DNA of 64,000 bases from contig OX459099.1 of NCBI GenBank assembly GCA_949775045.1, positions 5,067,067 to 5,131,066 of the forward strand. The letters run 5' to 3'. Shown here piece by piece: positions 5,699 through 61,390 of this stretch. The translations under genes were made by a program, and so were the position numbers. Under the pieces are notes generated by a model. It was given only the letters and a program-made list of their open reading frames with translations. It was not told where the DNA came from and did not search any database. Numbering within the stretch: the first letter of the stretch is position 1; each line of letters starts with the position of its first letter. The stretch comes from Metridium senile (lineage: Eukaryota > Cnidaria > Anthozoa > Actiniaria > Metridiidae).

Positions 5699-6757
5699 TT
5701 AAAGTCCAAGGCTTTTTGACACTGAAGCTCTAGAACTAATGTTATCCATAACATAGCCGTCCTTGGCCGAGGCAGACTTCCACCGTCCGTGCCTCTGGAA
5801 CACCCTGTCCCCAATACCAGCATTCGCTGCTGCAGTGGCCCCCCCGGCCCTTAGGGAATGTGTACTAAACGTGCGGATATCAGGAACGATAGATTTAAAA
5901 CAAGATTTAAAGGCTTCCCGTATAGTAGAATAACTAATGGGCTTATTGCTCCCAACCAAACGTTGACCCGTGCCAGTCTTACTAATAGGTCGGAACAAAA
6001 ACTCCTCAGAAAAACTATCGATATGAGCTAAACCTAGATACGTTTCGAGGATAGAAACAGGACACGACTGAGAACCAGTTAGCCTAGAGATAACAACCTC
6101 ATCGCCGAGGCGAAGTTGGTCGGTCTTACTCGATTCTACTGTGATAATAATACCATTATCAATGAAACGAATGTTGTTCCTCTTAATATTCAAGACCTCC
6201 TCGATACGGAAAAACCCCGCAAAAGCTAGCACAAACACACAAACGTTACGCAAGCATAACAAATTATTTAAATCAGAGTGAATAACTAAATTTTGAAGGT
6301 GTGCAGCCGTAAGGGGCATCTTCCTGTTGTTACGGTGTCTGCCAAAAAATCTGGAAGCAGCATCGCGAACAGCGACCACGACCGGATGACGCGTGGGGGA
6401 GTCGAAGCCAGCCAAAGAATGAGCCCACTGGATGGCGTAGAATGCTGAGTCAATGGTTGAGGCGGAATTTGCGGTATCCATCAAGGACTGCAGGTACAGA
6501 GCAACATCTAAGGGGCTGGCTGGGAGGACTTCCATGTGCTCGTAACAGGCTGCGAAACGTTTCCAGCGAAGAAAAGCTCTTTTATAAGAATTAGTGGTTC
6601 CCTCTGCTCTTGATGACAGAACCGTTGCCTTTAGACGCTCGAGGCTGTCTTGAAGACGCTCGTCATCCCAACTCTTCCCCTCTGCCCATATGCCTTTGTT
6701 GAAAATGTCTGCAAAACAAATAAACACATGCAATGAGTAGAACCAGAAAATCAGCAC
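5699..6757 (-). CDS. Tyrosine recombinase (integrase) of the Ngaro-type element
   Basis: Open frame of about 350 codons. The N-terminal half (SYKRAFLRWKRFA, LYLQSLMDTANSASTIDSA) has the SAM-like core-binding form of phage-type integrases. The catalytic half shows the expected residues in order: Arg in FFRIEEVLNIKR, His-x-x-Arg in THSLRAGGA, then HGRW, and the tyrosine nucleophile in DGYVMDN. It would cut and rejoin a circular DNA intermediate into the target. There is no ATG at the frame's start (the first codon read is GTG). On the coding strand TTTGTTTTGCAG ends at 6709, which looks like a 3' splice site, so this domain may be a downstream exon. Unlike gag and pol, it has no interruption. 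Confidence 0.88.
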   Translation of the reverse strand: MLIFWFYSLHVFICFADIFNKGIWAEGKSWDDERLQDSLERLKATVLSSRAEGTTNSYKRAFLRWKRFAACYEHMEVLPASPLDVALYLQSLMDTANSASTIDSAFYAIQWAHSLAGFDSPTRHPVVVAVRDAASRFFGRHRNNRKMPLTAAHLQNLVIHSDLNNLLCLRNVCVFVLAFAGFFRIEEVLNIKRNNIRFIDNGIIITVESSKTDQLRLGDEVVISRLTGSQSCPVSILETYLGLAHIDSFSEEFLFRPISKTGTGQRLVGSNKPISYSTIREAFKSCFKSIVPDIRTFSTHSLRAGGATAAANAGIGDRVFQRHGRWKSASAKDGYVMDNISSRASVSKSLGL

Positions 6758-6859
6758 CGTAGCTAACCATCCCAGAACAATGCAAAGCTACCTAACCCGC
6801 ATTTTTACCATAGCCTAAAACGGCCATCATAGTGAGGGCACACGGGGCCTTTACACTCA

Positions 6860-7100
6860 CTCACTTCACAAGCCGACAAGGCTGTAAGTGTCCGTAGCCA
6901 AAGAGGCCCTGCTCATTCTCAGCCGACAAGGCTCTGAGCTCACAAAGACCAACCTGGTCATGCGTGCACCGCCGCCCGCTGGGCTAGGTCCAACAAGACC
7001 AGATACAAACCAATATGACCTACAGCACGCACAACTGTAACCACACTGGTCTAAGCTCAAATCCAGCTCAAGGAGCTCTGCATCACCGTGACCGACAGGG
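6860..7100 (-). other. Non-coding linker between pol and recombinase in the Ngaro-type element
   Basis: Contains repeated AGCCGACAAGGCT-type and related short inverted motifs and no supportable frame. It may be an intron or an untranslated region of the element. Confidence 0.35.
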
Positions 7101-7358
7101 TCGAGTGCCTACTGCATGTGCCCATTCTGCTGTATCCATTTAGAACTCATGAAGCTCTTGCATACCTAAGCAAACCGGAAGAAAAAAAGAACAACAACAA
7201 CATAAAATCATGATAACAATAGAAAAATAGACACCAAACGTATCAATGGGATAACGACGACATTGAAATAGGAAAATTTCTTTATTAGCGATCCGTCATA
7301 TTTCAAAACAAAAACAAAAATTATTGTGGTATACAAAGTATAAAGCACACTTCTCCCC

Positions 7359-9473
7359 TTAATGTGCTGCGCAACTACAACTGGCACAAAAATCTCCCGA
7401 TAGTCCTCGTCTTGGAGGGACTGAAAAGTCAATAAATAACGCTAGGACCGGAGCACGGTTAGGATTGGAGTTAAGGAGATTATTCTTGGCCTTCCCAATG
7501 ACAAACACATCCGAGAAGGGGGGAAGGACCACCCAGTCATGCACAAAGGGATTCCAATGGACCCCGTCGTGACATAGCAAAGTCCAGTAATAAGAAGACC
7601 TCCATAGTGGTACAAGTAGGGAACCACGTGCGTTACACAACCTCATGTGCGCGATACTTTTGCCAATAAGCGAGATGGGGGAACCACCCAATTAACGTCG
7701 TAGTGCCAATTCTGCAGTAACGCATCAACAGCTTCAGTACCAGGTTGAAAAAATCTTGAGTTAAATCTAGTGAGTTTTGTGTTGTAGAAACAAGCGAAAC
7801 GGTCAATGGTATGAGGGCCCCACAAACTGTCCAAGTAGACAAATACTTCCTCTTTGACCGTATAATCATCAAAATCAATAATTTTGCTTATGCTATCAGC
7901 CGTGCAGTTCAAGTCCCTTGGGATCCAAACTGGGGAAACACATACCTTGTTTGTGCTGCGAAGCACAAAAATTTCTAATGCTAAATCCTGTAGCTCTCTA
8001 ACTTTGCTACCGCACTCAATGATAGAAACAACGTTCTGATTGTCTGAGTACCACGCCACATGGCTGTTTTTCACCTGCTCAATGTACGACGATAACGCCA
8101 ACTTAACAGCTGCTAGCTCCCTCCAAGTGGACGACTTTGCACACTCAGCTTCAGACCAATTTGCCTGAAAAATACGATTGTCAAAGTTAACGTGCGCTCC
8201 GCATCCGGAGCCCGATGCGTCTGAATAGACTACTTTCACCGGTACGGTGCAACTCTTCCAAAATGGAATGCCATTAAGTGACTTCAGATTAGATCTCCAA
8301 AAAAGGAGTTCGCGTTGGGCTGGACCGTCAAGAACAACCAAGGAATTCCAGTTTCCCCTGCTGTTGACAACAAAATGTAAGTAACGAGACATAATTCGCG
8401 TGACAGAACCACAACAAATACTCAAGGAAATAATGCATCCTACAATAGAAGCAACACACTTGACACGGCATACATAAACGCATGACGTGTTGTCAATACT
8501 ATCACACATTTTATCCAATAAATTCTGTAACTTATCAATCCTTCTCTGAGAGGCCTGTATAACCCCTGCATTGGAGTCGATTACGCAACCCAGCCAAGTA
8601 ATCCTGGACAACGGTGACCACGAGGATTTCTCTTCATTTAGAACAAATCCAAGATCCGCTAACGTAGTGCGGACGGTAGAACTGAATGAAGAACAACGAT
8701 CAAAATCGCCCGAGGCTCCAATACCGTCGTCCAAGTACACCACCATAGGAATGCCTTGGGCTCGCCAGTGACAAACAACAGGCCTAAGCAGCTTGGTGAA
8801 GATATACGGAGCTGAGGATAAACCAAACGGTAGAATTGTGAAATGAAAAATCTAGGATGAGTACAATTATTCAAACACCAACTGAACGAGAGAAATTGAC
8901 GGTGTTCCGGAAAAATATCCAAATGATGGTAGCCGGACTTAAGATCAAAGGTGAAAAACAAATCACCAGGCTTGGACATTTCACGTAAGGTAGCCAAATC
9001 CTCACACTTGAATTTCTGCTTATAGATAAATAAGTTAATGTGTCGTAAGTCTAGAATCAATCTTTTCTTTCCACACGATTGCACTGACACAGACAAAGGA
9101 TTGAGAATAACGGGCCTTTCATAAACTTCTTCCACTCGAGAATCCGATAACAAATCCAAAATGGCTTCGTCAACAAAAGTAGCATGTTCAAACGCAGAGT
9201 TATTGTTATTCTTAACAAAAGGCGTAGGACTTGTGATGAAAGGAATCTTATAACCTTGTTCTATTGTCTGTAGAATGAATTCACTAGCATGAATAGCATT
9301 TCATTGAGCAATTGCTTTTTTAAGTCGCCCTTTAACGGACTTGCACACAAAGGAATCTAAGTCACTTTCGCAATATGCAAAATATTCGGTTTGTAAATTA
9401 TCGTTCATAACATCCAAAATGAAAACGTCATCTTCACAAATTGAAGAGTCAAGTTCAATGGATTCGGGGTCTT
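7359..9473 (-). pseudogene. Reverse transcriptase-RNase H of the Ngaro-type element, interrupted
   Basis: Reading down the minus strand: an N-terminal segment after gag, then the RT fingers/palm (LILDLRHIN; FTFDLKSGYHHLDIFPEH), FHFTILPFGLSSAPYIFTKL in another frame, and the catalytic YLDD box in MVVYLDDGIG near 8735. RNase H follows with SDASGSG, WRELAAV, YSDNQNV and NCTADSI, the DEDD residues typical of this group, and then the short C-terminal region found after RNase H in DIRS-like pol. Breaks: an in-frame TGA near 9303 where a tryptophan is likely, a one-base shift in a T-run near 8850, and a one-base shift in a C-run near 7675. Family membership is clear; this copy is not intact as read. 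Confidence 0.88.
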
Positions 9474-13972: not shown

Positions 13973-15295
13973 AATAATAATATAATAAAAAATACTATAA
14001 TAGTAGTAATATATTTATATTTATATGGCGCATATTCCAAAGAGTTATGTTCATATGCGTCTAAAATATAGTAGTACTATTCTTAAAAATACAACTAAAT
14101 AATCAATTGATGTCCTAAAATGCAATAATGAATAATATATATACTATTGAGATTATTAAAAAGCTAATAATAATAATAATAATAATATTAATATTAATAT
14201 ACTAATTAACGAATATTAATACAGTAAAAACCAGCATATAAGAACAAATTAGTGGGTTAAGAACACCCAGCCTGAATTTTGGCGTTTTAAGAGCGTTCCT
14301 CTGAGAATATCGACCATAGGTGTGCAAAATGCCCAGAAACCGAATTTCTCATACTTTGCTCAAAGATAGCCCTCGATGTCCGTATCACAGAAATAATAGT
14401 GAAAGTTTCAACAGATTGTTATTTTAGGAGAAATTCGACATTTTAGGTTTGAAGGCTTGATAAGGCGATTTCCCGGCATCACACGTACTCCGCGAGAAAT
14501 GCATTTTCGAAGTGTAAACAAAATTGAATTTCGTAACTGTATAGCTCTTTTAAAAGATCGATAAACACTTGTTATTTCAGCAGTAAAATTATTGTTTTTT
14601 ATTTAGAATTGAAAATTTAATGGAATTTTGAATTTGACCTAAATTTAGTCGATTTTCAATGCCTGAAAATAGCACAAATTGAGGAGTCAAAAAACCAACT
14701 TGTTACATGACTTTATGAAATAAACAAATGTTCCTGTGAAAGAGCATCCTTTTAGCTTTTAGAAAATGTAAAAACATTTTTGGGCTACTAGAATTTCGAC
14801 ATTCTAGAGCTCCTCGAAAAGGCATTGTGGACGCTAAAAATAGCATGTGTCACGGTGACGTGCGTGACATCGTGACACACAAACGTCTGATTAATTATGC
14901 TAATAAAAACATTTCAATGGATTTCTGTCACAATTTTAATGCATTTTAACCCTTTTTATTTCTTTAGAACAATATTTTGTATATATAGACATTTTATATA
15001 ATTTTTGATACTTTTATTTTAGTATTTTATTTGTTAGGCATTGCCAAGTCCTCATTTCGTTTTGAGTAACATTACTAAATTAAGAAACGAAGCAATTCCG
15101 TAGAATTGAGGCTTCAAATATACACTATATCTATACTTAAATATGTCTATAGTTAAAAACATTGGTAAAGTTTTTGAATTGAAATGAAATTAAAAGCAGC
15201 GCTGTGCTGTAAAAATAATTAGCTAAATATATGTGCATAAATTTAATTCATTGTTCTGCTTCAATGATTTGAGCGTGACCTTTTATTTATAGTAT

Positions 15296-16012
15296 CACTA
15301 AAAGTGTGCAATATTTTGTACTATTTGCCACTAAATAGTGTTGATTAAACAATAGAGAGCAAAAGAATAACAAAAAAAAAACATATAAAAAAAAAACGCA
15401 AAAAAAAAAAGAGAATTGAAGATAAAAGATAAACAATTAACTGAAAAGAACAACAATGTCCAGAGAAATAACGAAAATATGAAAATATAATAACGCATAA
15501 TCGATCACCAAAGCTTGGTGAATGTCCGCAGGCATAATGCCCTAAAAACAAAGCTAATTTCACCATACCGTAAGTCCTCTAAAAGCCACGTGGGGGCTTT
15601 TTATTTCAAGCTCGTTAGAGAGGGGGCGGTTAAAGGAGAGGGGGGCAGTTAAAGGAGTGGGGGGGCTTAATAGAGGGGAGGGGCTTATTAATTTGACCGG
15701 AAATTTAGATGATGATGTTTTTTTAATCAAAATACAGTAGACAATCTGGAATAAAAACAAGTCATACATCACAAAAAATTGAAGAGTAGACCTAAGAAAC
15801 TAAAACACATGAGGTTTAAGATCATACAGCTGAAAATAAGGAACAAGATTTTGTTTTTTGTTCCGTCAGTGAACTGACAAGTATTAGATAGAGCTACTAC
15901 GGTAGAGTGATAACACTAAAAGTGTGCAACATAAATACTACTAAATACTGCTAAATTATGCAAATTCTTTTGTTCTCTATTGTTTAATCAACACTATTTA
16001 GTGGTAAATTAC
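15296..16012. mobile_element. Private insertion in the left arm with CACTAAAAGTGTGCAA ends
   Basis: CACTAAAAGTGTGCAATA begins at 15296 and again at about 15916. A segment around GTTGATTAAACAATAGAG (15340-15365) is inverted at about 15965-16006, enclosing about 600 bp with A-runs. Related to the compact element at 25073-25195. Confidence 0.55.
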
Positions 16013-16020
16013 GGTGGCCC

Positions 16021-16165
16021 ATAAATGTCACGGCAAAACTTTATTACTCACGGCAAATCTTTTATTATTCACGACAAATCTGTTATTATTCACGGCAAAT
16101 CTTTTATTATTCACGACAAATCTGTTATTATTCACGGCAAAACTTTCAGTTACTAACGGCAAAAC
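16021..16165. repeat. Minisatellite TTATTATTCACGGCAAATC, left arm
   Basis: About six units of roughly 21 bp. A shorter set of about three units occurs in the right arm at 22678-22756, so unit number has diverged between the arms. Confidence 0.75.
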
Positions 16166-16830
16166 TTACGAAAACAAAACTGAAGCTGCGGCATTCCTGT
16201 GTAAAATTCAAGATAGCGGATGAAGTAGTAACGTTAGTCTACCTCGCAGCCGTTCTTAGTGTCGGGCTTCCTGGGGTAATGAAGTAGATGATCACGGCTC
16301 GAAAGTAGTTATCACCCCCTCTATGGCAACATTATTGACATTCCGTATTTTATAGCAACAAAATGATATTCGATATTTTATAGATCCTTTTGAAATATGG
16401 GAAAGAACGGAGTTATGGTTGTTTAAAAAATTCCGATCATAACTGTAAACATTGTATTGACACGCGTGCGGTTGTCAGTATGGTAATCACAATGCAACGG
16501 GTGACCAGGAAATATGTATTGTTAATTCTAGAATAATGGTTTGGAACGTGTGTTCTTGTTAGCTTATTGTTTCTGAAAGTAAATAGAAAAACAATTTTAA
16601 AATTCTTTCTATTCAAATTAGATTATAAAAAGTGAGTTAGTTTGTAGTACTTCAATTTCAACTCCATTAGATATATCAGAACATTTTTAAAATTATTTTC
16701 ACTGTATGGTTATAAAAAGAGGATCTTATTTAAAAACAAAGTAACTAGGCTAGTGTCGTTTTAGTTCGTCTTGAAGTCGCAAAGCGTGCGCTCCAACCAG
16801 TTTATTCGCGGAAAACATTTAACCTTGAAT

Positions 16831-17280
16831 ATGTCCGAAAATCAAATTCAAGTGGAAGTTAAAATCGTTAGAGGGAAAACAAAAATTCTCATACGAAATC
16901 AGAATGAAAATCGGGCCACAAGCAAGTCATCTGTTACTAAATCTCTGACTGTTGATGAATGGAAAGAACTTAAGAGATCAGCTCAGGCCATCGACAAACA
17001 ACTACTGAAATCGAGCACCAGCAGAAATACACTCCAATTACCAGTGCTGCATTCGGAGCCTAGTAATGCTAAAGAAAAAATGGATATCATTCAAAGTTCA
17101 TTGCCTGATGCAACCCCACTGGTTGATGTTACCAATATATGTAATGATGTAGAATGCAACACTGCCGATCTGTCAAAAGTTGATCTTCCTAGCATCCAGA
17201 CTTTTGACGAAGAAAGTACTAAAGCTGTTGCAGAGCTTCTTAACATTTTACAGGAAATCAAGTATCCTCAAGGGTGGTAG
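16831..17280 (+). CDS. Uncharacterised palindrome-arm protein B, left copy
   Basis: The frame opens at 16771, but the first ATG is at 16831, giving 149 residues. The start is a basic, beta-like segment (QIQVEVKIVRGKTKILIRN) followed by Ser/Thr-rich sequence containing LTVDEWKELKRSAQAID, and the end is helical (ESTKAVAELLNILQEIK). I do not recognise the family. Further coding-like sequence follows at 17334-17694 in other frames, so the gene may be spliced or decayed. An identical copy lies in the other arm at 20958-21407, so the arms have kept it unchanged. It is transcribed toward the palindrome centre and faces the zinc-finger gene. Confidence 0.55.
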   Translation: MSENQIQVEVKIVRGKTKILIRNQNENRATSKSSVTKSLTVDEWKELKRSAQAIDKQLLKSSTSRNTLQLPVLHSEPSNAKEKMDIIQSSLPDATPLVDVTNICNDVECNTADLSKVDLPSIQTFDEESTKAVAELLNILQEIKYPQGW

Positions 17281-17333
17281 ATGGTTTCCATACTTAATCA
17301 TATATTTAAAACTGCTCGAAGGAGCTACTCATT

Positions 17334-17694
17334 CGACAACTCAACCGAAAGTGCTCAGTCATAGCTGCCCATAAGTACAAAGAAAAAGAAACTCACTTTG
17401 ATCAAGAAAGAATGAATGACACAGAAGGGAAATTTATCATGAATCCAAACTGTAAGAAACATTATATCATTATCAATGATAACGAAGAGGTCATTTATGA
17501 TGCAGAAAGAGAATTAACCGTTTAATTACCTGGTCAGGACAAAACCTGAAAAAGGAGCAAAATCACCACGTGTTGGATACTATTGTCAGAATACCGAATG
17601 TCATTTACGTCTAGCACAAAATTTGAAAGCAGAATGCTGTTATTGCAAGGACAATTTCTTTGAATGCAGTTGCTACTATGGGATGGATCAGTAA
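17334..17694 (+). pseudogene. Cysteine-rich coding segment downstream of protein B, left copy
   Basis: Two overlapping frames read as protein. One starts near 17334 (RQLNRKCSVIAAHKYKEK) and stops near 17525. The other ends at a TAA at 17692-17694 and contains VGYYCQNTECHL and ECCYCKDNFFECSCYY. The cysteine pairs suggest a small zinc-binding domain. They could be later exons of protein B, or remnants split by a frameshift. The mirror copy is at about 20544-20904. Confidence 0.4.
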
Positions 17695-17829
17695 TATAGG
17701 AGTGTTCTCTCCTTTTGGTTCATAACATCATTTATATATATGTTTGACTTAAGTGTCGTAAATAAAAGGGTACCAGTATGAGCTATTTATAGCTTTCCTT
17801 ACTCGAGTGCGTTTTAATTGAAGGTTGTA

Positions 17830-17930
17830 AATGAATAGATGAATAAATGGATGGATGGATGAATGAATGAATAAATGAAATATCAGATAAATATGCAACT
17901 AAATGAATGAATGAATAAATGAAAGACTAG
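17830..17930. repeat. (GAAT)n-type tract, left arm
   Basis: GAATGAATGAATAAATG-type tract, mirrored in the right arm at about 20315-20410. Confidence 0.8.
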
Positions 17931-18360
17931 AATAATTTGTAGACAAATTAATTAAATAATAACAATAAAATAAAATAGATCAGCTGAGATGCATCTTTAA
18001 ATACATTTTCCATTTTTTAATCCTAGCCCTCTTTTGTTTGTTTTTCAGTGTCAAAAGAATGAATTTTAAACACAGTCCCATTTTTTGGCTTGTCGTATTT
18101 TTTATTTATTTTTAAATAAAATTGTCAATCTTAATCTTAACGCCTAACTGTTGTTGTTATAAGTTATCGTAGCGTTTATTACTGACACGTGTTAACCGTC
18201 AATAATAGTGTAACATAAACATATTCGAACGGCAATGATTAATAATGGTAAACTATTATTGTGTATGATTGTTTGAAGCTAAGAATTGTCAACATTTCGA
18301 TTTCTATATCGTCACATATTATTAACGTATAGCGTAAATATGTGTGTGCTTTTTTAACAA

Positions 18361-19002
18361 TTACTCCATTGAATCCGTTTCGTTGCTCTCCTTGCTATTA
18401 TCTTCTAAATATTGTGGAATAATTAAATCATTCAATAAAAATTTTCTTTGGTGAATAGCAAGTTTTGTTGCTTCAAGCCACTCATAGTCTCCAGTGTCCA
18501 ACAGTTCATTTCTGGTTTTCATGATCTTTTGAAAATAGAAGTCTCTTTTCATTGCGTGCAACCACTCCAACTTTTCCGTCAAGATATTTCTTAGTTCTTT
18601 TCTTACAATCGGAAGCATTCTATTATAAGCAATTTGTTTGGCATTTTCTTCCGTTGCACCATCAGATTGAAGCTTTTCGACTATTTCTCTTCTTTCTTCC
18701 TTGTGTTCAGCAATAGCTTCATCTATTAGAGATTGCCAGTACCATGGATGTTCAGAATCATCGGATTCGGATTCGGTGTCTGGCTCACTTTCACTACTGG
18801 AATCAGATTCGCTATTATCGTCATCAGCTGATATATCTTGAGAACTTCCAACATTACTACAATCGTCCTCAGTACTACTCTCAACGGCATAACTATCCAT
18901 GTTATCAGTCATTTTACACGAGTTGTTTTCTAAATGACGCCTCAAATTAAATGATCTTGAAAACACTTTACAACAATATGGGCACTGTTTCGAGCTAAAC
19001 AT
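18361..19002 (-). CDS. Zinc-finger acidic protein A, left palindrome copy
   Basis: 213 residues from a clear ATG near the palindrome centre. Residues 7-29 form a single finger (CPYCCKVFSRSFNLRRHLENNSC, spacing C-x2-C-x12-H-x5-C, a CCHC variant of the C2H2 fold). A Ser/Asp/Glu-rich acidic stretch follows (about 45-90), then a highly charged helical C-terminal half containing WYWQSLIDEAIAEHKEER and LEWLHAMKRDFYFQK. This layout suits a DNA-binding or chromatin factor; no function is known to me. It differs from the right-arm copy by three extra residues (a 9-bp indel in the tail). It is transcribed outward from the shared central region, divergent from its twin at 19245-19877. Confidence 0.75.
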   Translation of the reverse strand: MFSSKQCPYCCKVFSRSFNLRRHLENNSCKMTDNMDSYAVESSTEDDCSNVGSSQDISADDDNSESDSSSESEPDTESESDDSEHPWYWQSLIDEAIAEHKEERREIVEKLQSDGATEENAKQIAYNRMLPIVRKELRNILTEKLEWLHAMKRDFYFQKIMKTRNELLDTGDYEWLEATKLAIHQRKFLLNDLIIPQYLEDNSKESNETDSME

Positions 19003-19028
19003 GTATACTCACCACAAGTTAATTGCTA

Positions 19029-19218
19029 AATGAGCAAAATGAGCATTATGAGCAGTATAAATGAGCAAATATGAGCTACCCTGAGCACAGGAGCAGCTTG
19101 AGCAAACAAGCATAAAAGCTTACTCAAAAGTACTCGTTCCTTTGCTCAAGCTGCTCCTGTGCTCAGGGTAGCTCATATTTGCTCATTTATACTGCTCATA
19201 ATGCTCATTTTGCTCATT
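19029..19218. promoter_or_regulatory. Central GAGC-repeat region of the palindrome
   Basis: Left of the 34-bp spacer there are eight GAGC motifs (seven as TGAGC), mostly 8-10 bp apart. The right side carries the complementary series. They lie between the two divergent zinc-finger genes. Near-helical spacing suggests protein binding sites or a bidirectional promoter (inference). Confidence 0.45.
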
Positions 19219-19244
19219 TAGCAATTAACTTGTGGTGAGTATAC

Positions 19245-19877
19245 ATGTTTAGCTCGAAACAGTGCCCATATTGTTGTAAAGTGTTTTCAAGATCATTTAA
19301 TTTGAGGCGTCATTTAGAAAACAACTCGTGTAAAATGACTGATAACATGGATAGTTATGCCGTTGAGAGTAGTACTGAGGACGATTGTAGTAATGTTGGA
19401 AGTTCTCAAGATATATCAGCTGATGACGATAATAGCGAATCTGATTCCAGTAGTGAAAGTGAGCCAGACACCGAATCCGAATCCGATGATTCTGAACATC
19501 CATGGTACTGGCAATCTCTAATAGATGAAGCTATTGCTGAACACAAGGAAGAAAGAAGAGAAATAGTCGAAAAGCTTCAATCTGATGGTGCAACGGAAGA
19601 AAATGCCAAACAAATTGCTTATAATAGAATGCTTCCGATTGTAAGAAAAGAACTAAGAAATATCTTGACGGAAAAGTTGGAGTGGTTGCACGCAATGAAA
19701 AGAGACTTCTATTTTCAAAAGATCATGAAAACCAGAAATGAACTGTTGGACACTGGAGACTATGAGTGGCTTGAAGCAACAAAACTTGCTATTCACCAAA
19801 GAAAATTTTTATTGAATGATTTAATTATTCCACAATATTTAGAAGATAATAGCAAGGAAACGGATTCAATGGAGTAA
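19245..19877 (+). CDS. Zinc-finger acidic protein A, right palindrome copy
   Basis: 210 residues, the same protein as the left copy except that the C-terminus reads NSKETDSME in place of NSKESNETDSME. Finger, acidic region and helical half are unchanged, so both copies remain open after duplication. It starts 242 bp from its divergent twin, and the two share the central GAGC-repeat region as a possible bidirectional promoter. Confidence 0.75.
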   Translation: MFSSKQCPYCCKVFSRSFNLRRHLENNSCKMTDNMDSYAVESSTEDDCSNVGSSQDISADDDNSESDSSSESEPDTESESDDSEHPWYWQSLIDEAIAEHKEERREIVEKLQSDGATEENAKQIAYNRMLPIVRKELRNILTEKLEWLHAMKRDFYFQKIMKTRNELLDTGDYEWLEATKLAIHQRKFLLNDLIIPQYLEDNSKETDSME

Positions 19878-20543
19878 TTGTTAAAAAAGCACACACATAT
19901 TTACGCTATACGTTAATAATATGTGACGATATAGAAATCGAAATGTTGACAATTCTTAGCTTCAAACAATCATACACAATAATAGTTTACCATTATTAAT
20001 CATTGCCGTTCGAATATGTTTATGTTACACTATTATTGACGGTTAACACGTGTCAGTAATAAACGCTACGATAACTTATAACAACAACAGTTAGGCGTTA
20101 AGATTAAGATTGACAATTTTATTTAAAAATAAATAAAAAATACGACAAGCTAAAAAATGGGACTGTGTTTAAAATTCATTCTTTTGACACTGAAAAACAA
20201 ACAAAAGAGGGCTAGGATTAAAAAATGGAAAATGTATTTAAAGATGCATCTCAGCTGATCTATTTTATTTTATTGTTATTATTTAATTAATTTGTCTACA
20301 AATTATTCTAGTCTTTCATTTATTCATTCATTCATTTAGTTGCATATTTATCTGATATTTCATTTATTCATTCATTCATCCATCCATCCATTTATTCATC
20401 TATTCATTTACAACCTTCAATTAAAACGCACTCGAGTAAGGAAAGCTATAAATAGCTCATACTGGTACCCTTTTATTTACGACACTTAAGTCAAACATAT
20501 ATATAAATGATGTTATGAACCAAAAGGAGAGAACACTCCTATA

Positions 20544-20904
20544 TTACTGATCCATCCCATAGTAGCAACTGCATTCAAAGAAATTGTCCTTGCAATAACA
20601 GCATTCTGCTTTCAAATTTTGTGCTAGACGTAAATGACATTCGGTATTCTGACAATAGTATCCAACACGTGGTGATTTTGCTCCTTTTTCAGGTTTTGTC
20701 CTGACCAGGTAATTAAACGGTTAATTCTCTTTCTGCATCATAAATGACCTCTTCGTTATCATTGATAATGATATAATGTTTCTTACAGTTTGGATTCATG
20801 ATAAATTTCCCTTCTGTGTCATTCATTCTTTCTTGATCAAAGTGAGTTTCTTTTTCTTTGTACTTATGGGCAGCTATGACTGAGCACTTTCGGTTGAGTT
20901 GTCG
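20544..20904 (-). pseudogene. Cysteine-rich coding segment downstream of protein B, right copy
   Basis: Mirror of 17334-17694 with the same two-frame arrangement. The shared break shows that either the frame change predates the duplication or it reflects a real intron. Confidence 0.4.
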
Positions 20905-20957
20905 AATGAGTAGCTCCTTCGAGCAGTTTTAAATATATGATTAAGTATGGAAACCAT

Positions 20958-21407
20958 CTACCACCCTTGAGGATACTTGATTTCCTGTAAAATGTTAAGA
21001 AGCTCTGCAACAGCTTTAGTACTTTCTTCGTCAAAAGTCTGGATGCTAGGAAGATCAACTTTTGACAGGTCGGCAGTGTTGCATTCTACATCATTACATA
21101 TATTGGTAACATCAACCAGTGGGGTTGCATCAGGCAATGAACTTTGAATGATATCCATTTTTTCTTTAGCATTACTAGGCTCCGAATGCAGCACTGGTAA
21201 TTGGAGTGTATTTCTGCTGGTGCTCGATTTCAGTAGTTGTTTGTCGATGGCCTGAGCTGATCTCTTAAGTTCTTTCCATTCATCAACAGTCAGAGATTTA
21301 GTAACAGATGACTTGCTTGTGGCCCGATTTTCATTCTGATTTCGTATGAGAATTTTTGTTTTCCCTCTAACGATTTTAACTTCCACTTGAATTTGATTTT
21401 CGGACAT
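20958..21407 (-). CDS. Uncharacterised palindrome-arm protein B, right copy
   Basis: Residue-for-residue copy of the left-arm protein B, with the first ATG at 21407. It faces the right zinc-finger gene, so each arm has one convergent gene pair. Cysteine-rich downstream sequence is present at about 20544-20904. Confidence 0.55.
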   Translation of the reverse strand: MSENQIQVEVKIVRGKTKILIRNQNENRATSKSSVTKSLTVDEWKELKRSAQAIDKQLLKSSTSRNTLQLPVLHSEPSNAKEKMDIIQSSLPDATPLVDVTNICNDVECNTADLSKVDLPSIQTFDEESTKAVAELLNILQEIKYPQGW

Positions 21408-22677
21408 ATTCAAGGTTAAATGTTTTCCGCGAATAAACTGGTTGGAGCGCACGCTTTGCGACTTCAAGACGAACTAAAACGACACTAGCCTAGTTACTTT
21501 GTTTTTAAATAAGATCCTCTTTTTATAACCATACAGTGAAAATAATTTTAAAAATGTTCTGATATATCTAATGGAGTTGAAATTGAAGTACTACAAACTA
21601 ACTCACTTTTTATAATCTAATTTGAATAGAAAGAATTTTAAAATTGTTTTTCTATTTACTTTCAGAAACAATAAGCTAACAAGAACACACGTTCCAAACC
21701 ATTATTCTAGAATTAACAATACATATTTCCTGGTCACCCGTTGCATTGTGATTACCATACTGACAACCGCACGCGTGTCAATACAATGTTTACAGTTATG
21801 ATCGGAATTTTTTAAACAACCATAACTCCGTTCTTTCCCATATTTCAAAAGGATCTATAAAATATCGAATATCATTTTGTTGCTATAAAATACGGAATGT
21901 CAATAATGTTGCCATAGAGGGGGTGATAACTACTCTCGAATCTTTGTTTTATAGAGGATACGGGTATGAAAAAGTTTTCCATATGTTCAGAACGCAACTT
22001 AAGATAAACATGGGTCCAATTAGCACACTAAAAGAAAGCTGTAGCAGTACAAACTGCAATGTAACATTGAGTTCGAATCGCAAAAACTAAGAAACGCTAC
22101 AATGTCAATTTGTAAAAGCGATGAACTGATAAGCATTGACCTGGGCGTAGTGTGGGACTTAAAAATGTGAAAGAATAACCGAAACATTAAAAAGAAGGAT
22201 GAAAAAGTGGAAAATATAATTAGATATATAATAAAACGAGTAATGTAAATAGATGAATGAAGTAATATGGAAAATGAAAAACAAAAAAATTGGGCATGGA
22301 TGGTGGAATATAGAATAATTGGAGAAAAAAAGAACCAGTAATAAAAAATATGATAAAAAATATAAATAAAAACAAAGAAGAAATATATGGGTAAATGGGT
22401 TAAATAGAATAAAAAATCAAAAAAAGTATTTTAAAAGACACTCATGAAATAAGCGGGGATGCATGGGAGGGAGAAGAGGAATGGCGAAAATACGACCGAA
22501 AAAGGTGAACTATTATTGCTTTAAAAGCACGAAAAACAAGGATGGCATGGAGGAATATATGAAAAGGAAATGATGTGTGGTAATGATATAAATTTGGTGT
22601 AAAAAATATAAAGTAAACAATAAAAAAATAGATATGTAAATAAATGCATGAATAGATGAATAAATAAATGATATGCC

Positions 22678-22756
22678 ACGAGCAATAAAAGATTTGCCGT
22701 GAATAATAAAAGATTTGCCGTGAATAATAAAAGATTTGCCGTGACATTTATGGGCC
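22678..22756. repeat. Minisatellite, right arm
   Basis: Complement of the left-arm minisatellite, with about three units (AATAAAAGATTTGCCGTG) next to GACATTTATGGGCCACCGG. Confidence 0.7.
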
Positions 22757-25072
22757 ACCGGTACCGTAGTAAATAGTACAAAGTATTGCACACTTTTAGT
22801 GTTTGTACTGTACCAGATACTATAAATAAAAGGTCACGCTCAAATTATTGAAGCAGAACAATTAAATTTATGCACATATATTTAGCTAATTATTTTTACA
22901 GCACAGCGCTGCTTTTAATTTCATTTCAATTCAAAAACTTTACCAATGTATTTTAACTATAGACATATTTAAGTATAGATATAGTGTATATTTGAAGCCT
23001 TAATTCTACGGAATTGCTTCGTTTCTTAATTTAGTAATGTTACTCAAAACGAAATGAGGACTTGGCAATGCCTAACAAATAAAATACTAAAATAAAAGTA
23101 TCAAAAATTATATAAAATGTCTATATATACAAAATATTGTTCTAAAGAAATAAAAAGGGTTAAAATGCATTAAAATTGTGACAGAAATCCATTGAAATGT
23201 TTTTATTAGCATAATTAATCAGACGTTTGTGTGTCACGATGTCACGCACGTCACCGTGACACATGCTATTTTTAGTGTCCACAATGCCTTTTCGAGGAGC
23301 TCTAGAATGTCGAAATTCTAGTAGCCCAAAAATGTTTTTACATTTTCTAAAAGCTAAAAGGATGCTCTTTCACAGGAACATTTGTTTATTTCATAAAGTC
23401 ATGTAACAAGTTGGTTTTTTGACTCCTCAATTTGTGCTATTTTCAGGCATTGAAAATCGACTAAATTTAGGTCAAATTCAAAATTCCATTAAATTTTCAA
23501 TTCTAAATAAAAAACAATAATTTTACTGCTGAAATAACAAGTGTTCATCGATCTTTTAAAAGAGCTATACAGTTACGAAATTCAATTTTGTTTACACTTC
23601 GAAAATGCATTTCTCGCGGAGTACGTGTGATGCCGGGAAATCGCCTTATCAAGCCTTCAAACCTAAAATGTCGAATTTCTCCTAAAATAACAATCTGTTG
23701 AAACTTTCACTATTATTTCTGTGATACGGACATCGAGGGCTATCTTTGAGCAAAGTATGAGAAATTCGGTTTCTGGGCATTTTGCACACCTATGGTCGAT
23801 ATTCTCAGAGGAACGCTCTTAAGAGCGAGTCCGTGTGAAAACCATGCAAAATCGAAAAATGTGTCTACAACGGGTATCACCGATTTCTTTCATTTTTGGC
23901 CGAGATATGTATTTTAGTGTAAATATTAACTGTGTGCAATATAAAACAAAAATATTAAATTCTCTAGAAGATATCGAGGTTTAAGGGAATGTAGTCAGAC
24001 AAACGATAAAAATTGCTTGAAATTTACACCAACTTTACAAATCAATTTCTCTAAAAATATAGCTTTTTTCTTACCTGGAATTCGTACAGACCTACTACAA
24101 CATATAATAAATACAACGACAGTATCAAAGTATCAAAAGATTTATTTAAAGAAAATATTTGCTTATTTACATATCAGGCTATGAAATCTACATTTTGAGT
24201 ATGCATTCTTAACAATTCGATATACAAGATCCGGCAACTTTTTAAAACCACAAAGTTTGACTTTTATGTACAACTGATAATGGTTAACAAATACAAAGAA
24301 AAAAAATTCTGTAAAGTTTTTTAAAACTTAAAAGGGTGAAGAGATACAGTATCACGAATTTCGCGTTTTTACACGTATCCAATTATAAGACTAATGACCA
24401 TTTGCGACTAAAAAAGCCGATAAGTTTTAAAATACTTACCTAAAAACAACAGCTAATGTAGTAGGGCGATTTAAGAAGTCATAAATGTACAATGGTTCCC
24501 GGTCGTTAACCATTTTAGAGTTAACTTTCAGAAAAGCATGTTATTATGACATAAAAAATGGAATGAAATAATAGTGATAATAACAATAAAATAAAATAAT
24601 GCCGGCCCAACAGAGATCGTAAAGTGAGTTAGCGATTCTCTTCTGTCAAACAAATTGCCTATTAAAATATTTGCATACTAATGTCAGTGAAAACAAATTT
24701 TAGCCTAACGATGTATTCTATGGGTATCAGAACGTTAAAACTAAATAAATGTATATTTTTTGGACCAGCTATTCTATTTGAAATAATATTTTTTACCTAG
24801 CTGTTTTTTTGTTCACATTGTCAGTTGTTTATAGTAATTATCACTAGACTAGACCAATTATGTTTGATTGACGGAAGAGAATCGCTTCACAGTCGTTTGG
24901 CGGGAATGGCAAGTATTTTAATACTTAAAAATCGATGGTAATCCAGATTCATCTTATTCACTCTCTAGATATCTCAACGTAAAAAAGAAACGGCTCAATT
25001 CAAAACTCTTCAATACTAATTGTCAATATATATAGTGTTCAATGAAAATTCCTTTAAACGATAGAGTACAAA

Positions 25073-25195
25073 CACTAAAAGTGTGCAACATAAATACCAC
25101 TAAATACTGCTAAATTATGCAAATTCCTTTGTTCTCTATTGTTTAATCAACACTATTTAGTGGTAAATAGTACAAAATGTTGCACACTTTTAGTG
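25073..25195. mobile_element. 123-bp MITE, CACTAAAAGTGTGCAACA termini
   Basis: Left CACTAAAAGTGTGCAACAT and right ATGTTGCACACTTTTAGTG are perfect inverted repeats. It shares its interior with the left-arm insertion at 15296-16012. Confidence 0.8.
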
Positions 25196-25267
25196 GTTGT
25201 ACTCTATAATAAACTATTTAGTATTTTTAATTTCACCGAAACTCAGATGGGATCGAAAATGCAACCC

Positions 25268-25600
25268 TTACTTAGATGTAACAATACCTTGACCAATTTT
25301 GCATAACATTCCCCATGTTTCGAACATCTCTTGAGAAATACACTTTGCATGTCCACCTCTGACAGGCTTTTGTTTAGAATCGTGTGGGGGATGCTTACAG
25401 ACTTGACTGGGACGCCAGCCTAAACCAAAGTGGTCTCTATGCAGCGGACATATTGTCATATCATCTGTATTTTCAGTTTGAAAAACACCAGCCCTTAAAA
25501 GAAAAAGTTCCCACTCGTACTTCACATCTTTGGAAGAAGTTTTTAAACAGCCAAGTAGATGGGTGCAGATAATCCTTGTACAAGATTTTAAAGGTAGCAA
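25268..25600 (-). CDS. Cys/His-domain protein fragment in the TTAA element
   Basis: The open frame is about 110 codons and begins at a TTG; no ATG opens it. Its core, MTICPLHRDHFGLGWRPSQ, is followed by C-x2-PPH, HAKC and a helix around ISQEMFETWG. The C-P-x-H-R...G-x-W-R...C pattern resembles a Cys/His module I recall from many large uncharacterised proteins of marine animals. It looks like one exon of a larger gene. Its position between transposon ends suggests the module is cargo or part of the element's own protein. Confidence 0.45.
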   Translation of the reverse strand: MLPLKSCTRIICTHLLGCLKTSSKDVKYEWELFLLRAGVFQTENTDDMTICPLHRDHFGLGWRPSQVCKHPPHDSKQKPVRGGHAKCISQEMFETWGMLCKIGQGIVTSK

Positions 25601-26370
25601 AACCCAATATTTGTTTCACGACTTTTTATTCAACTTAAAGTACTAATAAGATAATGTGCTAAACGTGGGCAGAATATTGGTGCAGGAAACAAACCTGAAA
25701 GGAAATACGAGGCCGTAAAACTTTAGGTATATTTTATGCAAATTTTGACCGTTTTTAGGGTAAAATACTCAAATGGTTGTAACTTTAAGCCTTTTTAATT
25801 TAAAGCCAAAAACATTCACCAAAGTAATAAGTTAACTAAGATGTACAATTGAGGTAAGTTTGAAGAAAATCGGTGATGTACGGTGTAGACTGGTCTGCAT
25901 GGTTTTCACGCGGACTCGCTCTTAAGTACCATGTAAATAAGAACACAATCAGCCTGAAAAATTAAAAAGTGTTCTTATATATTAAACTGTAGCAGACTCC
26001 AAGCCTGACCTGACAATAATTTATTTTCTACTGTTTTGATACTATTATTGCAGTCAAGATTTTTTAAATAACATTTTTGAACTTACACATTGATATCATC
26101 TATATGTATTGGTAGTCTATATAGTAATATATATTTTAGAAACATTTATTTTAAGAACACCTTAAGAACACCTTCAGGCTGATTTTTCAGTAAACACCCG
26201 TTAAATAAGAACAAAAACAGCCTGAACTCTAAAAATGGGTGTTCTTATATGCGGGTTTTTACTGTATTAAAACCGATGTGATATTAGGAATAATAATTAA
26301 TTTAATTACAATGTGATTTTAAAAAGCTAATTTAAAATGAGTCATTTTGTCTTTAATCGTCTCTGGAAGA

Positions 26371-26515
26371 ATACCCTGGGTTCCAGAGGCTCTAGAGGGG
26401 ATTGGGGCGAGACCCCCGGCGGGGAGGCGAAAGGCGGAGAGAGCTCTCTCCGCCTTTCGCCTCCCCGCCGGGGGTCTCGCCCCAATCCTCTCTAGAGCCT
26501 CTGGAACCCAGGGTA
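26371..26515. mobile_element. GC-rich near-perfect 145-bp hairpin with 8-bp target duplication
   Basis: Arms of about 72 bp pair with one mismatch around GAGAGCTCTC, with ends TACCCTGGG and CCCAGGGTA. CTGGAAGA flanks both sides (26363-26370 and 26516-26523), an 8-bp target-site duplication as made by hAT-type transposases. The open frames on both strands are hairpin shadows. Confidence 0.8.

Positions 26516-37924: not shown

Positions 37925-61390
<23,466 letters not shown>

What the first reader, a model, noticed from the sequence alone, without database searches (positions are those of the whole stretch)
14291..23818. A 9.5-kb TTAA-flanked palindromic element with two copies of the same convergent gene pair
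Seen: inverted arms around a 34-bp spacer, each encoding the same zinc-finger protein and the same second protein, with TTAA at both outer edges and GAGCG ends. Known: long terminal inverted repeats normally hold non-coding ends, and foldback elements rarely carry duplicated genes. Inference: a new type of long-palindrome DNA element, possibly a head-to-head dimer. Private insertions and a 9-bp indel between the arms argue against a simple assembly artefact.
Basis: partly seen in the sequence, partly recalled or inferred. Interest (0 to 1): 0.92.

Follow-up and report, generated by a model that had tools for sequence, protein, structure and literature searches.

The report
Palindromic satellite of a Polinton transposon
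The palindrome is real but is a separate 5.6-kb mobile element, present in many copies in this animal genome, that shares its ends with a large virus-like transposon (Polinton) and keeps its two gene-bearing halves nearly identical to each other.

Summary
The palindrome is real; its boundaries were misread. 14287-23822 holds two nested elements. The TTAA edges belong to a 3.9-kb multicopy element (Kolobok-like ends). Ten fetched copies lack the centre; six show the exact empty site. The palindrome is 16304-21934, with 6-bp TSD CTCGAA and ends AGTAGT...ACTACT. In this 389-Mb genome, 30 of 41 scored zinc-finger-gene matches form 15 head-to-head pairs. Of 17 examined loci with both ends, 16 have exact 6-bp TSDs, all different. 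Each arm encodes a C2H2 protein and a PC4-like protein; 10 of 12 complete copies also keep a 92-aa Cys-rich ORF. Within these 12, arms differ by 0-4 substitutions, copies by up to 67, and 3 of 4 ORF defects are in both arms: arms copy each other. The 16-bp end motif (66 hits, reversed control 0) also bounds two elements (18.0 and 24.3 kb) with intact pPolB frames; one has TSD ATTAAT and a 191-bp identical end. Best reading: a non-autonomous, gene-bearing palindromic satellite of a Polinton, replicated and integrated in trans, its arms equalised during replication (inferred). Some diverged relatives (35%, 62-66%) are also head-to-head pairs; others are unpaired.

The parts
14287..14290 (.). TTAA, left TSD of the 3.9-kb host element
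   Evidence: same edges in the fetched copies
14291..16297 (.). left part of the 3.9-kb TTAA host element (1-kb TIR 14291-15326, MITE and 21-bp repeats to 16167)
16298..16303 (.). left copy of the 6-bp TSD CTCGAA of the palindromic element
   Evidence: empty site GGCTCGAATC in 6 of 10 host copies
16304..19106 (.). left arm of the palindromic element
16304..16664 (.). Polinton-like end: 361 bp aligned to the right end (97.0%) and first 243 bp to the left end (94.6%, first 191 bp identical) of the C8 pPolB-bearing element
16831..17280 (+). PC4-like ORF, 149 aa (left arm)
   Evidence: Pfam PC4 E=0.026, below cut-off
17412..17525 (+). remnant (37 aa) of the Cys-rich ORF that is 92 aa in 10 of 12 complete copies
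18361..19002 (-). C2H2 zinc-finger protein, 213 aa (left arm)
19003..19106 (.). left half of the centre: 8 GAGC motifs (TGAGCA array) between the ZF start and the spacer
19107..19139 (.). spacer (loop) of the palindrome
   Evidence: nearly the same 33-36-bp spacer in all 12 complete copies, in either orientation
19140..21934 (.). right arm of the palindromic element
19245..19877 (+). C2H2 zinc-finger protein, 210 aa (right arm, lacks 9 bp in frame)
20713..20826 (-). remnant of the Cys-rich ORF, truncated at the same point as in the left arm
20958..21407 (-). PC4-like ORF, 149 aa (right arm)
21574..21934 (.). Polinton-like end of the right arm (mirror of 16304-16664)
   Evidence: the alignment itself was made on the left arm
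21935..21940 (.). right copy of the 6-bp TSD CTCGAA
21941..23818 (.). right part of the 3.9-kb TTAA host element
23819..23822 (.). TTAA, right TSD of the host element, shared with the neighbouring 2.1-kb element

Best explanation
16304-21934 is one copy of a family of non-autonomous palindromic mobile elements that use the ends, and by inference the replication and integration proteins, of a Polinton/Maverick in the same genome. Shown: own 6-bp TSDs, ends identical to those of a pPolB-bearing element, many near-identical palindromic copies, conserved ORFs, and arms far more alike within a copy than between subfamilies. Inferred: the Polinton's pPolB copies the element from its ends; the displaced single strand snaps back into a 2.8-kb duplex with the 33-36-nt spacer as loop; copying around the loop regenerates both arms from one strand, so the arms are equalised each round; the Polinton integrase inserts it. 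The PC4-like (single-strand-binding type) and zinc-finger proteins would assist, the finger perhaps binding the GAGC array at the centre.
For: Empty site and TSD in the window copy. 16 of 17 two-ended loci have exact 6-bp TSDs. Integrases of the rve type in Polinton-like viruses typically make 6-bp TSDs (PMC12220804, passages). The end motif AGTAGTWAKCACCCCC has 66 hits against 0 for the reversed control. Two of 25 facing pairs enclose intact pPolB frames and a third pPolB lies 10 kb from a single end; these three have the highest single-match scores among the 22 pPolB places found; 0.12 were expected within 25 kb of an end, P=2e-4. The C8 element's ends match, including 191 identical bases, and it has TSD ATTAAT. 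Arm differences are 0-4 substitutions per 2.8 kb against 18-67 between subfamilies. Three of four ORF defects seen in the 12 complete copies are in both arms. Variable sites: ZF ORF 1.1%, PC4-like ORF 2.7%, outer non-coding 8.7%. Ten pairs of diverged relatives are also head to head, 5 with equal scores.
Against: No direct evidence of replication, expression or an extrachromosomal form. Integrase and capsid genes of the 18- and 24-kb elements were not examined; only pPolB and, for one, two 600-base ends were. Chromosomal gene conversion could equalise arms as well. The PC4 call is weak (E 0.026; single-sequence model pLDDT 35). The 12 copies fall into about six groups and within groups copies differ by only 0-4, so the contrast does not rest on 12 independent copies. 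One ORF defect (L031, right PC4-like ORF, 143 aa) is in one arm only. Many diverged ZF matches are unpaired: by my count 13 of 27 at 62-67% identity, all 23 at 41-42%, and one 75% pair points the other way.
Confidence: 0.77

Rival explanations
1. The arms are kept alike by ordinary arm-to-arm gene conversion in the chromosome after insertion, as in mammalian Y palindromes (recalled), and transposition is by Polinton machinery without any snap-back step.
For: Arms are near identical in every complete copy; conversion needs no special replication.
Against: Copy-specific single-arm changes persist (window 9-bp indel and 2 substitutions, L042 and L043 4 each), while subfamily-specific changes are in both arms, so equalisation looks tied to transposition rather than continuous. 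This is weak evidence.
Confidence: 0.3
2. Each subfamily's palindrome arose anew by inverted dimerisation of a monomer (for example abortive gap repair), so the arms are alike because each dimer is young.
For: Would give identical arms and different subfamilies. Unpaired diverged relatives exist.
Against: All 12 complete copies share nearly the same 33-36-bp spacer. The 8 fetched single-ZF copies (of 11) are truncated or centre-deleted palindromes that keep part of the second arm, only about 21 bp of it in L036. No intact monomer was seen; three single-ZF places were not fetched.
Confidence: 0.12
3. Assembly artefact: single arms folded back by the assembler or by hairpin reads.
For: L031 has flanks that are palindromic for 1139 of 1139 bases, as a fold-back would give.
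Against: The other two-ended loci have exact 6-bp TSDs (16 of 17); the window copy sits at a proven empty site; arms carry private substitutions in 7 of 12 copies.
Confidence: 0.04
4. One TTAA-flanked 9.5-kb Kolobok-like long-palindrome transposon.
For: TTAA edges and 5'-RR ends fit Kolobok (PMC9587614, parts 1-2 of 6 of the text).
Against: Ten outer-element copies lack the palindrome, and the palindrome sits at other sites with 6-bp TSDs.
Confidence: 0.01

Closest known systems
Polinton/Maverick self-synthesising transposons
   Same: 6-bp TSD; 5'-AG...CT-3' ends (end rule recalled); ends shared with pPolB-bearing elements of 18.0 and 24.3 kb in the same genome
   Different: 5.6 kb, no pPolB, integrase or capsid ORF found; whole element is an inverted repeat with duplicated genes
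Non-autonomous deletion derivatives and MITEs of DNA transposons
   Same: Depends on machinery in trans (inferred); carries the partner's ends
   Different: Bears its own constrained genes, for which no match was listed at the three pPolB places that have these ends (150 of 291 candidates scored); palindromic layout that recurs in some relatives at 35% and 62-66% identity
Symmetric (panhandle/snap-back) defective genomes of protein-primed replicons such as adenovirus (recalled, not looked up)
   Same: Inverted end duplications that replicate by self-annealing
   Different: Here a stable, inherited genomic family with conserved genes
Foldback elements and Galileo/Tetris of Drosophila (search listing only)
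   Same: Very long inverted repeats
   Different: No duplicated conserved genes known to me; different ends and TSD (recalled)
Kolobok (for the 3.9-kb host element)
   Same: TTAA TSD, 5'-GA...TC-3' ends (RR/YY)
   Different: No transposase ORF seen in the host element copy examined

Membership tests
Polinton/Maverick | 6-bp target site duplication | tested here: met
   16 of 17 loci with both ends, window included
Polinton/Maverick | 5'-AG...CT-3' termini and TIRs | tested here: met
   AGTAGT...ACTACT; the inverted repeat is the whole arm; the AG rule is recalled
Polinton/Maverick | ends shared with a pPolB-bearing element in the same genome | tested here: met
Polinton/Maverick | encodes protein-primed DNA polymerase B | tested here: not met
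   ATG ORFs of 55 aa or more in the left arm: PC4-like, ZF and one 68-aa ORF antisense to ZF; no pPolB by Pfam. So it is not an autonomous Polinton
Polinton/Maverick | encodes rve integrase or capsid proteins | tested here: not met
   same ORF list and Pfam scans
Polinton/Maverick (the C8 and C1 partner elements) | rve integrase | not tested
   only pPolB and, for C8, two 600-base ends were examined
Kolobok (outer 3.9-kb element) | TTAA TSD and 5'-RR/YY-3' ends | tested here: met
   definition from PMC9587614
Kolobok (outer 3.9-kb element) | DDD/E transposase | tested here: not met
   longest stop-to-stop ORF in copy L013 is 140 aa; at most a non-autonomous relative
piggyBac (outer element) | TTAA with 5'-CC ends (recalled) | tested here: not met
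   ends are GAGCG
PC4 coactivator family (149-aa ORF) | Pfam PF02229 over its cut-off | tested here: inconclusive
   14.5 bits against cut-off 25; homologue P0014 14.7 bits; model unreliable

The most novel reading that the evidence does not exclude
A distinct class of genetic parasite: a hairpin-replicating satellite of an animal Polinton, analogous to a virophage or satellite virus. Its replicating form is a self-complementary strand, its genome is palindromic by necessity, and it carries its own zinc-finger, PC4-like and Cys-rich genes; the head-to-head layout recurs in some relatives at 35% and 62-66% identity, though others are unpaired.
Probability: 0.37. Interest if true: 0.95.

Novelty: new variant of a known kind. 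Interest (0 to 1): 0.86.

Why it matters
It ties a gene-bearing palindromic element to a Polinton by identical ends and offers a natural test of how protein-primed transposons replicate in animals. If replication passes through a snap-back strand, arms must be equalised at each transposition, which is what the copies look like. It would also be a satellite parasite on a virus-like transposon, with a conserved two- or three-gene cargo of unknown role. Practically, assembly can fold such palindromes (L031 looks like one such case), so the class may be missed elsewhere.

Tried and rejected
Kolobok/TTAA reading of the whole 9.5 kb: rejected by the empty sites. A 4-bp TCGA TSD for the palindrome, my first reading: replaced by 6-bp CTCGAA once other copies were seen. 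Viral origin in known viral contigs: no relative in viral contigs (end pattern) or genome contigs. Fold of the ZF protein's C-terminal domain: confident helical bundle (residues 87-200, block means of pLDDT 95 or more in most blocks) but no match at E<=0.001 in PDB or BFVD. The single-sequence model of the PC4-like protein is unusable (pLDDT 35). Folding of 501 bases at the element's left edge showed nothing beyond shuffles. Rfam (gathering threshold) and tRNA scans found nothing. Rows dropped: PC4 dN/dS pairs involving L030 are an artefact (the script fell back to the ZF ORF); L039 (interrupted) and L050 (fetched later) were not in the 12-copy arm comparison; one of the 15 pairs (C4:17422664) was not fetched.
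Full report
What is in the window. Outer arms 14291-15295/23818-22801 align with 4 substitutions and three gaps, and core arms 16299-19106/21939-19140 with 3 substitutions, the 9-bp indel and a 1-base alignment gap. Two ORFs are repeated in each core arm: a 149-aa protein with a sub-threshold PC4 match and a 213/210-aa C2H2 protein. TTAA and GAGCG lie at both outer edges.

Two elements, not one. A search of the window's own genome (G000, 389 Mb, 169 contigs) with the first 621 bases listed 40 matches, 40 of 156 candidates being scored. I fetched 11 places. Ten of the 11 contain a 3.9-kb element that equals window 14287-16298 joined to 21937-23822 and lacks the gene-bearing palindrome; two of the ten carry other insertions (L010, L017). 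At the junction six of the ten read GGCTCGAATC and four read GGCGGCGAATC. The window reads GGCTCGAA-[AGTAGT...ACTACT]-CTCGAATC. So the palindrome is an insertion at 16304-21934 with a 6-bp duplication CTCGAA.

The palindrome is a genome-wide family. The ZF gene gave 41 matches (40 of 109 candidates scored); 30 form 15 head-to-head pairs and 11 are single. I have 14 of the 15 pairs, counting the window, and 8 of the 11 singles. Of L030-L050 (21 loci), 16 show both ends and 15 of these have exact 6-bp TSDs; with the window that is 16 of 17, all 16 different. The exception, L031, has flanks palindromic over 1139 of 1139 bases and is probably an assembly fold-back. The eight singles are truncated or centre-deleted palindromes that keep part of the second arm, in L036 only about 21 bp.

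Arms copy each other. In 12 complete copies the two arms differ by 0, 1, 2 or 4 substitutions over 2.8 kb, whereas copies of different groups differ by 18-67; within groups copies differ by 0-4. There are about six groups. All 12 share nearly the same 33-36-bp spacer. Defects are mostly shared by both arms: the 92-aa Cys-rich ORF is cut to 37 aa in both arms of the window copy and to 74 aa in both arms of L030, and is intact in 20 of 24 arms. L030 lacks the 149-aa PC4-like ORF in both arms; 21 of 24 arms keep it; L031 has a 143-aa version in one arm only. The ZF ORF is open (210-213 aa) in 24 of 24.

Genes are constrained. Among six group representatives 1.1% of ZF ORF sites vary, 2.7% of the PC4-like ORF, 3.7% of the stretch between them, and 8.7% of the outer non-coding 527 bp. 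ZF dN/dS is 0-0.44 in 14 of 15 pairs and undefined in one (no synonymous change), on only 1-6 changes per pair. The ZF protein has a confident helical C-terminal bundle without a known fold. It belongs to a family of 69 profile hits, two of them named from Exaiptasia diaphana, so the host is probably a cnidarian (inference). Eight GAGC motifs lie in each 104-bp half of the centre, against a mean of 0.3 and a maximum of 4 in 10,000 mononucleotide shuffles.

Link to a Polinton. 6-bp TSDs are typical of rve integrases of Polinton-like elements (PMC12220804, passages). The genome search found 22 distinct places with pPolB (PF03175) in stop-free frames of 1099-1473 aa, a lower bound, as 90 of 226 candidates were scored (places counted). 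The end motif AGTAGTWAKCACCCCC occurs 66 times; read backwards, 0 times. The 66 make 25 facing pairs under 30 kb and 16 single ends. Two pairs enclose a pPolB gene (18.0 kb on C8, 24.3 kb on C1), and a third pPolB lies 10 kb from a single end on C2. These three have the highest single-match pPolB scores; 0.12 were expected within 25 kb of an end, P=2e-4. The other 19 pPolB places have no such end within 25 kb. The C8 element has TSD ATTAAT. Its left end is identical to the window palindrome for 191 bp and aligned for 257 bp (94.6%), and its right end aligns over 363 bp (97.0%).

Layout in diverged relatives. The ZF protein searched by six-frame translation gave 150 scored matches of 291 candidates. 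Ten further pairs, seven at 62-66% and three at 35% identity, are also divergent (-/+) within about 3 kb, 5 with equal scores in both members (typed, counted). Against this, by my count 13 of 27 matches at 62-67% and all 23 at 41-42% are unpaired, and one pair at 75% (C2:2486930/2488233) points the other way, tail to tail.

How it works. Shown: mobility by TSD, ends shared with a pPolB-bearing element, palindrome as the common form of this family, arm equalisation. Inferred: replication by the partner's pPolB from each end, snap-back of the displaced strand, copying round the loop, and integration by the partner's integrase. I put identity as a Polinton-dependent palindromic satellite at about 0.85, and the snap-back mechanism at about 0.5; 0.77 is for the combined statement with the mechanism marked as inference.

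Known work. Eight paper searches were run. None of the listed titles and abstract openings describes a palindromic gene-bearing Polinton satellite. That is a statement about these open-access searches only. PMC9587614 was read in part (parts 1-2 of 6 plus passages). PMC6004289, PMC2836005, PMC6431247 and PMC12220804 were seen as passages.

Noticed in passing
14291-16297 and 21941-23818; L009-L017, L019: A multicopy 3.9-kb TTAA element with 1-kb TIRs and no long ORF; 40 end matches scored of 156 candidates in the genome.
   Followed up: partly
23819-25925: A 2.1-kb TTAA element with TIR GAGCGAGTCCGYGTGAAAACC shares the same TTAA and the GAGCG start with the host element; it carries a 115-aa Cys/His-containing ORF (25268-25615) without Pfam match.
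   Followed up: partly
14222-14246 and 26240-26264: Inverted ends CAGTAAAAACC next to TA suggest that both TTAA elements sit inside an older mariner-like element.
   Followed up: no
25061-25207, 15296-16009, 22771-22823: A MITE (TIR ACAAACACTAAAAGTGTGCAA) in the 2.1-kb neighbour and, in different states, in both halves of the host element.
   Followed up: partly
L031 (C14:3448360-3456360): Flanks of this palindrome copy are themselves palindromic, 1139 of 1139 bases; probable assembly fold-back.
   Followed up: no
G000, 22 pPolB places: Several Polinton families with stop-free pPolB frames up to 1473 aa, twelve of them of 1467-1473 aa, suggesting recent activity.
   Followed up: no
C10:15733518-15735095 and C10:15748780-15749403: A 66%-identical ZF gene lies 14 kb from a pPolB gene; could be an autonomous element carrying the ZF gene, or nesting.
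   Followed up: no
G000, 23 places such as C13:8722605 and C5:7679015: 41-42%-identical ZF relatives, mostly in frames of about 190-207 aa with many equal scores, apparently unpaired.
   Followed up: no
L017 3784-8282: An insertion of about 4.5 kb in a host-element copy with ~100-bp TIRs and two long ORFs that resemble a YqaJ-type nuclease and a THAP-DDE transposase (recalled, not scanned).
   Followed up: no
5702-9300: DIRS-like element: tyrosine recombinase (PF00589) and reverse transcriptase (PF00078) on the minus strand.
   Followed up: no
43303-61390: Polycystin-1-like gene (REJ, PLAT, polycystin channel domains).
   Followed up: no
26372-26515: A 144-bp near-perfect palindrome (98.6%) with G+C-rich arms.
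   Followed up: no
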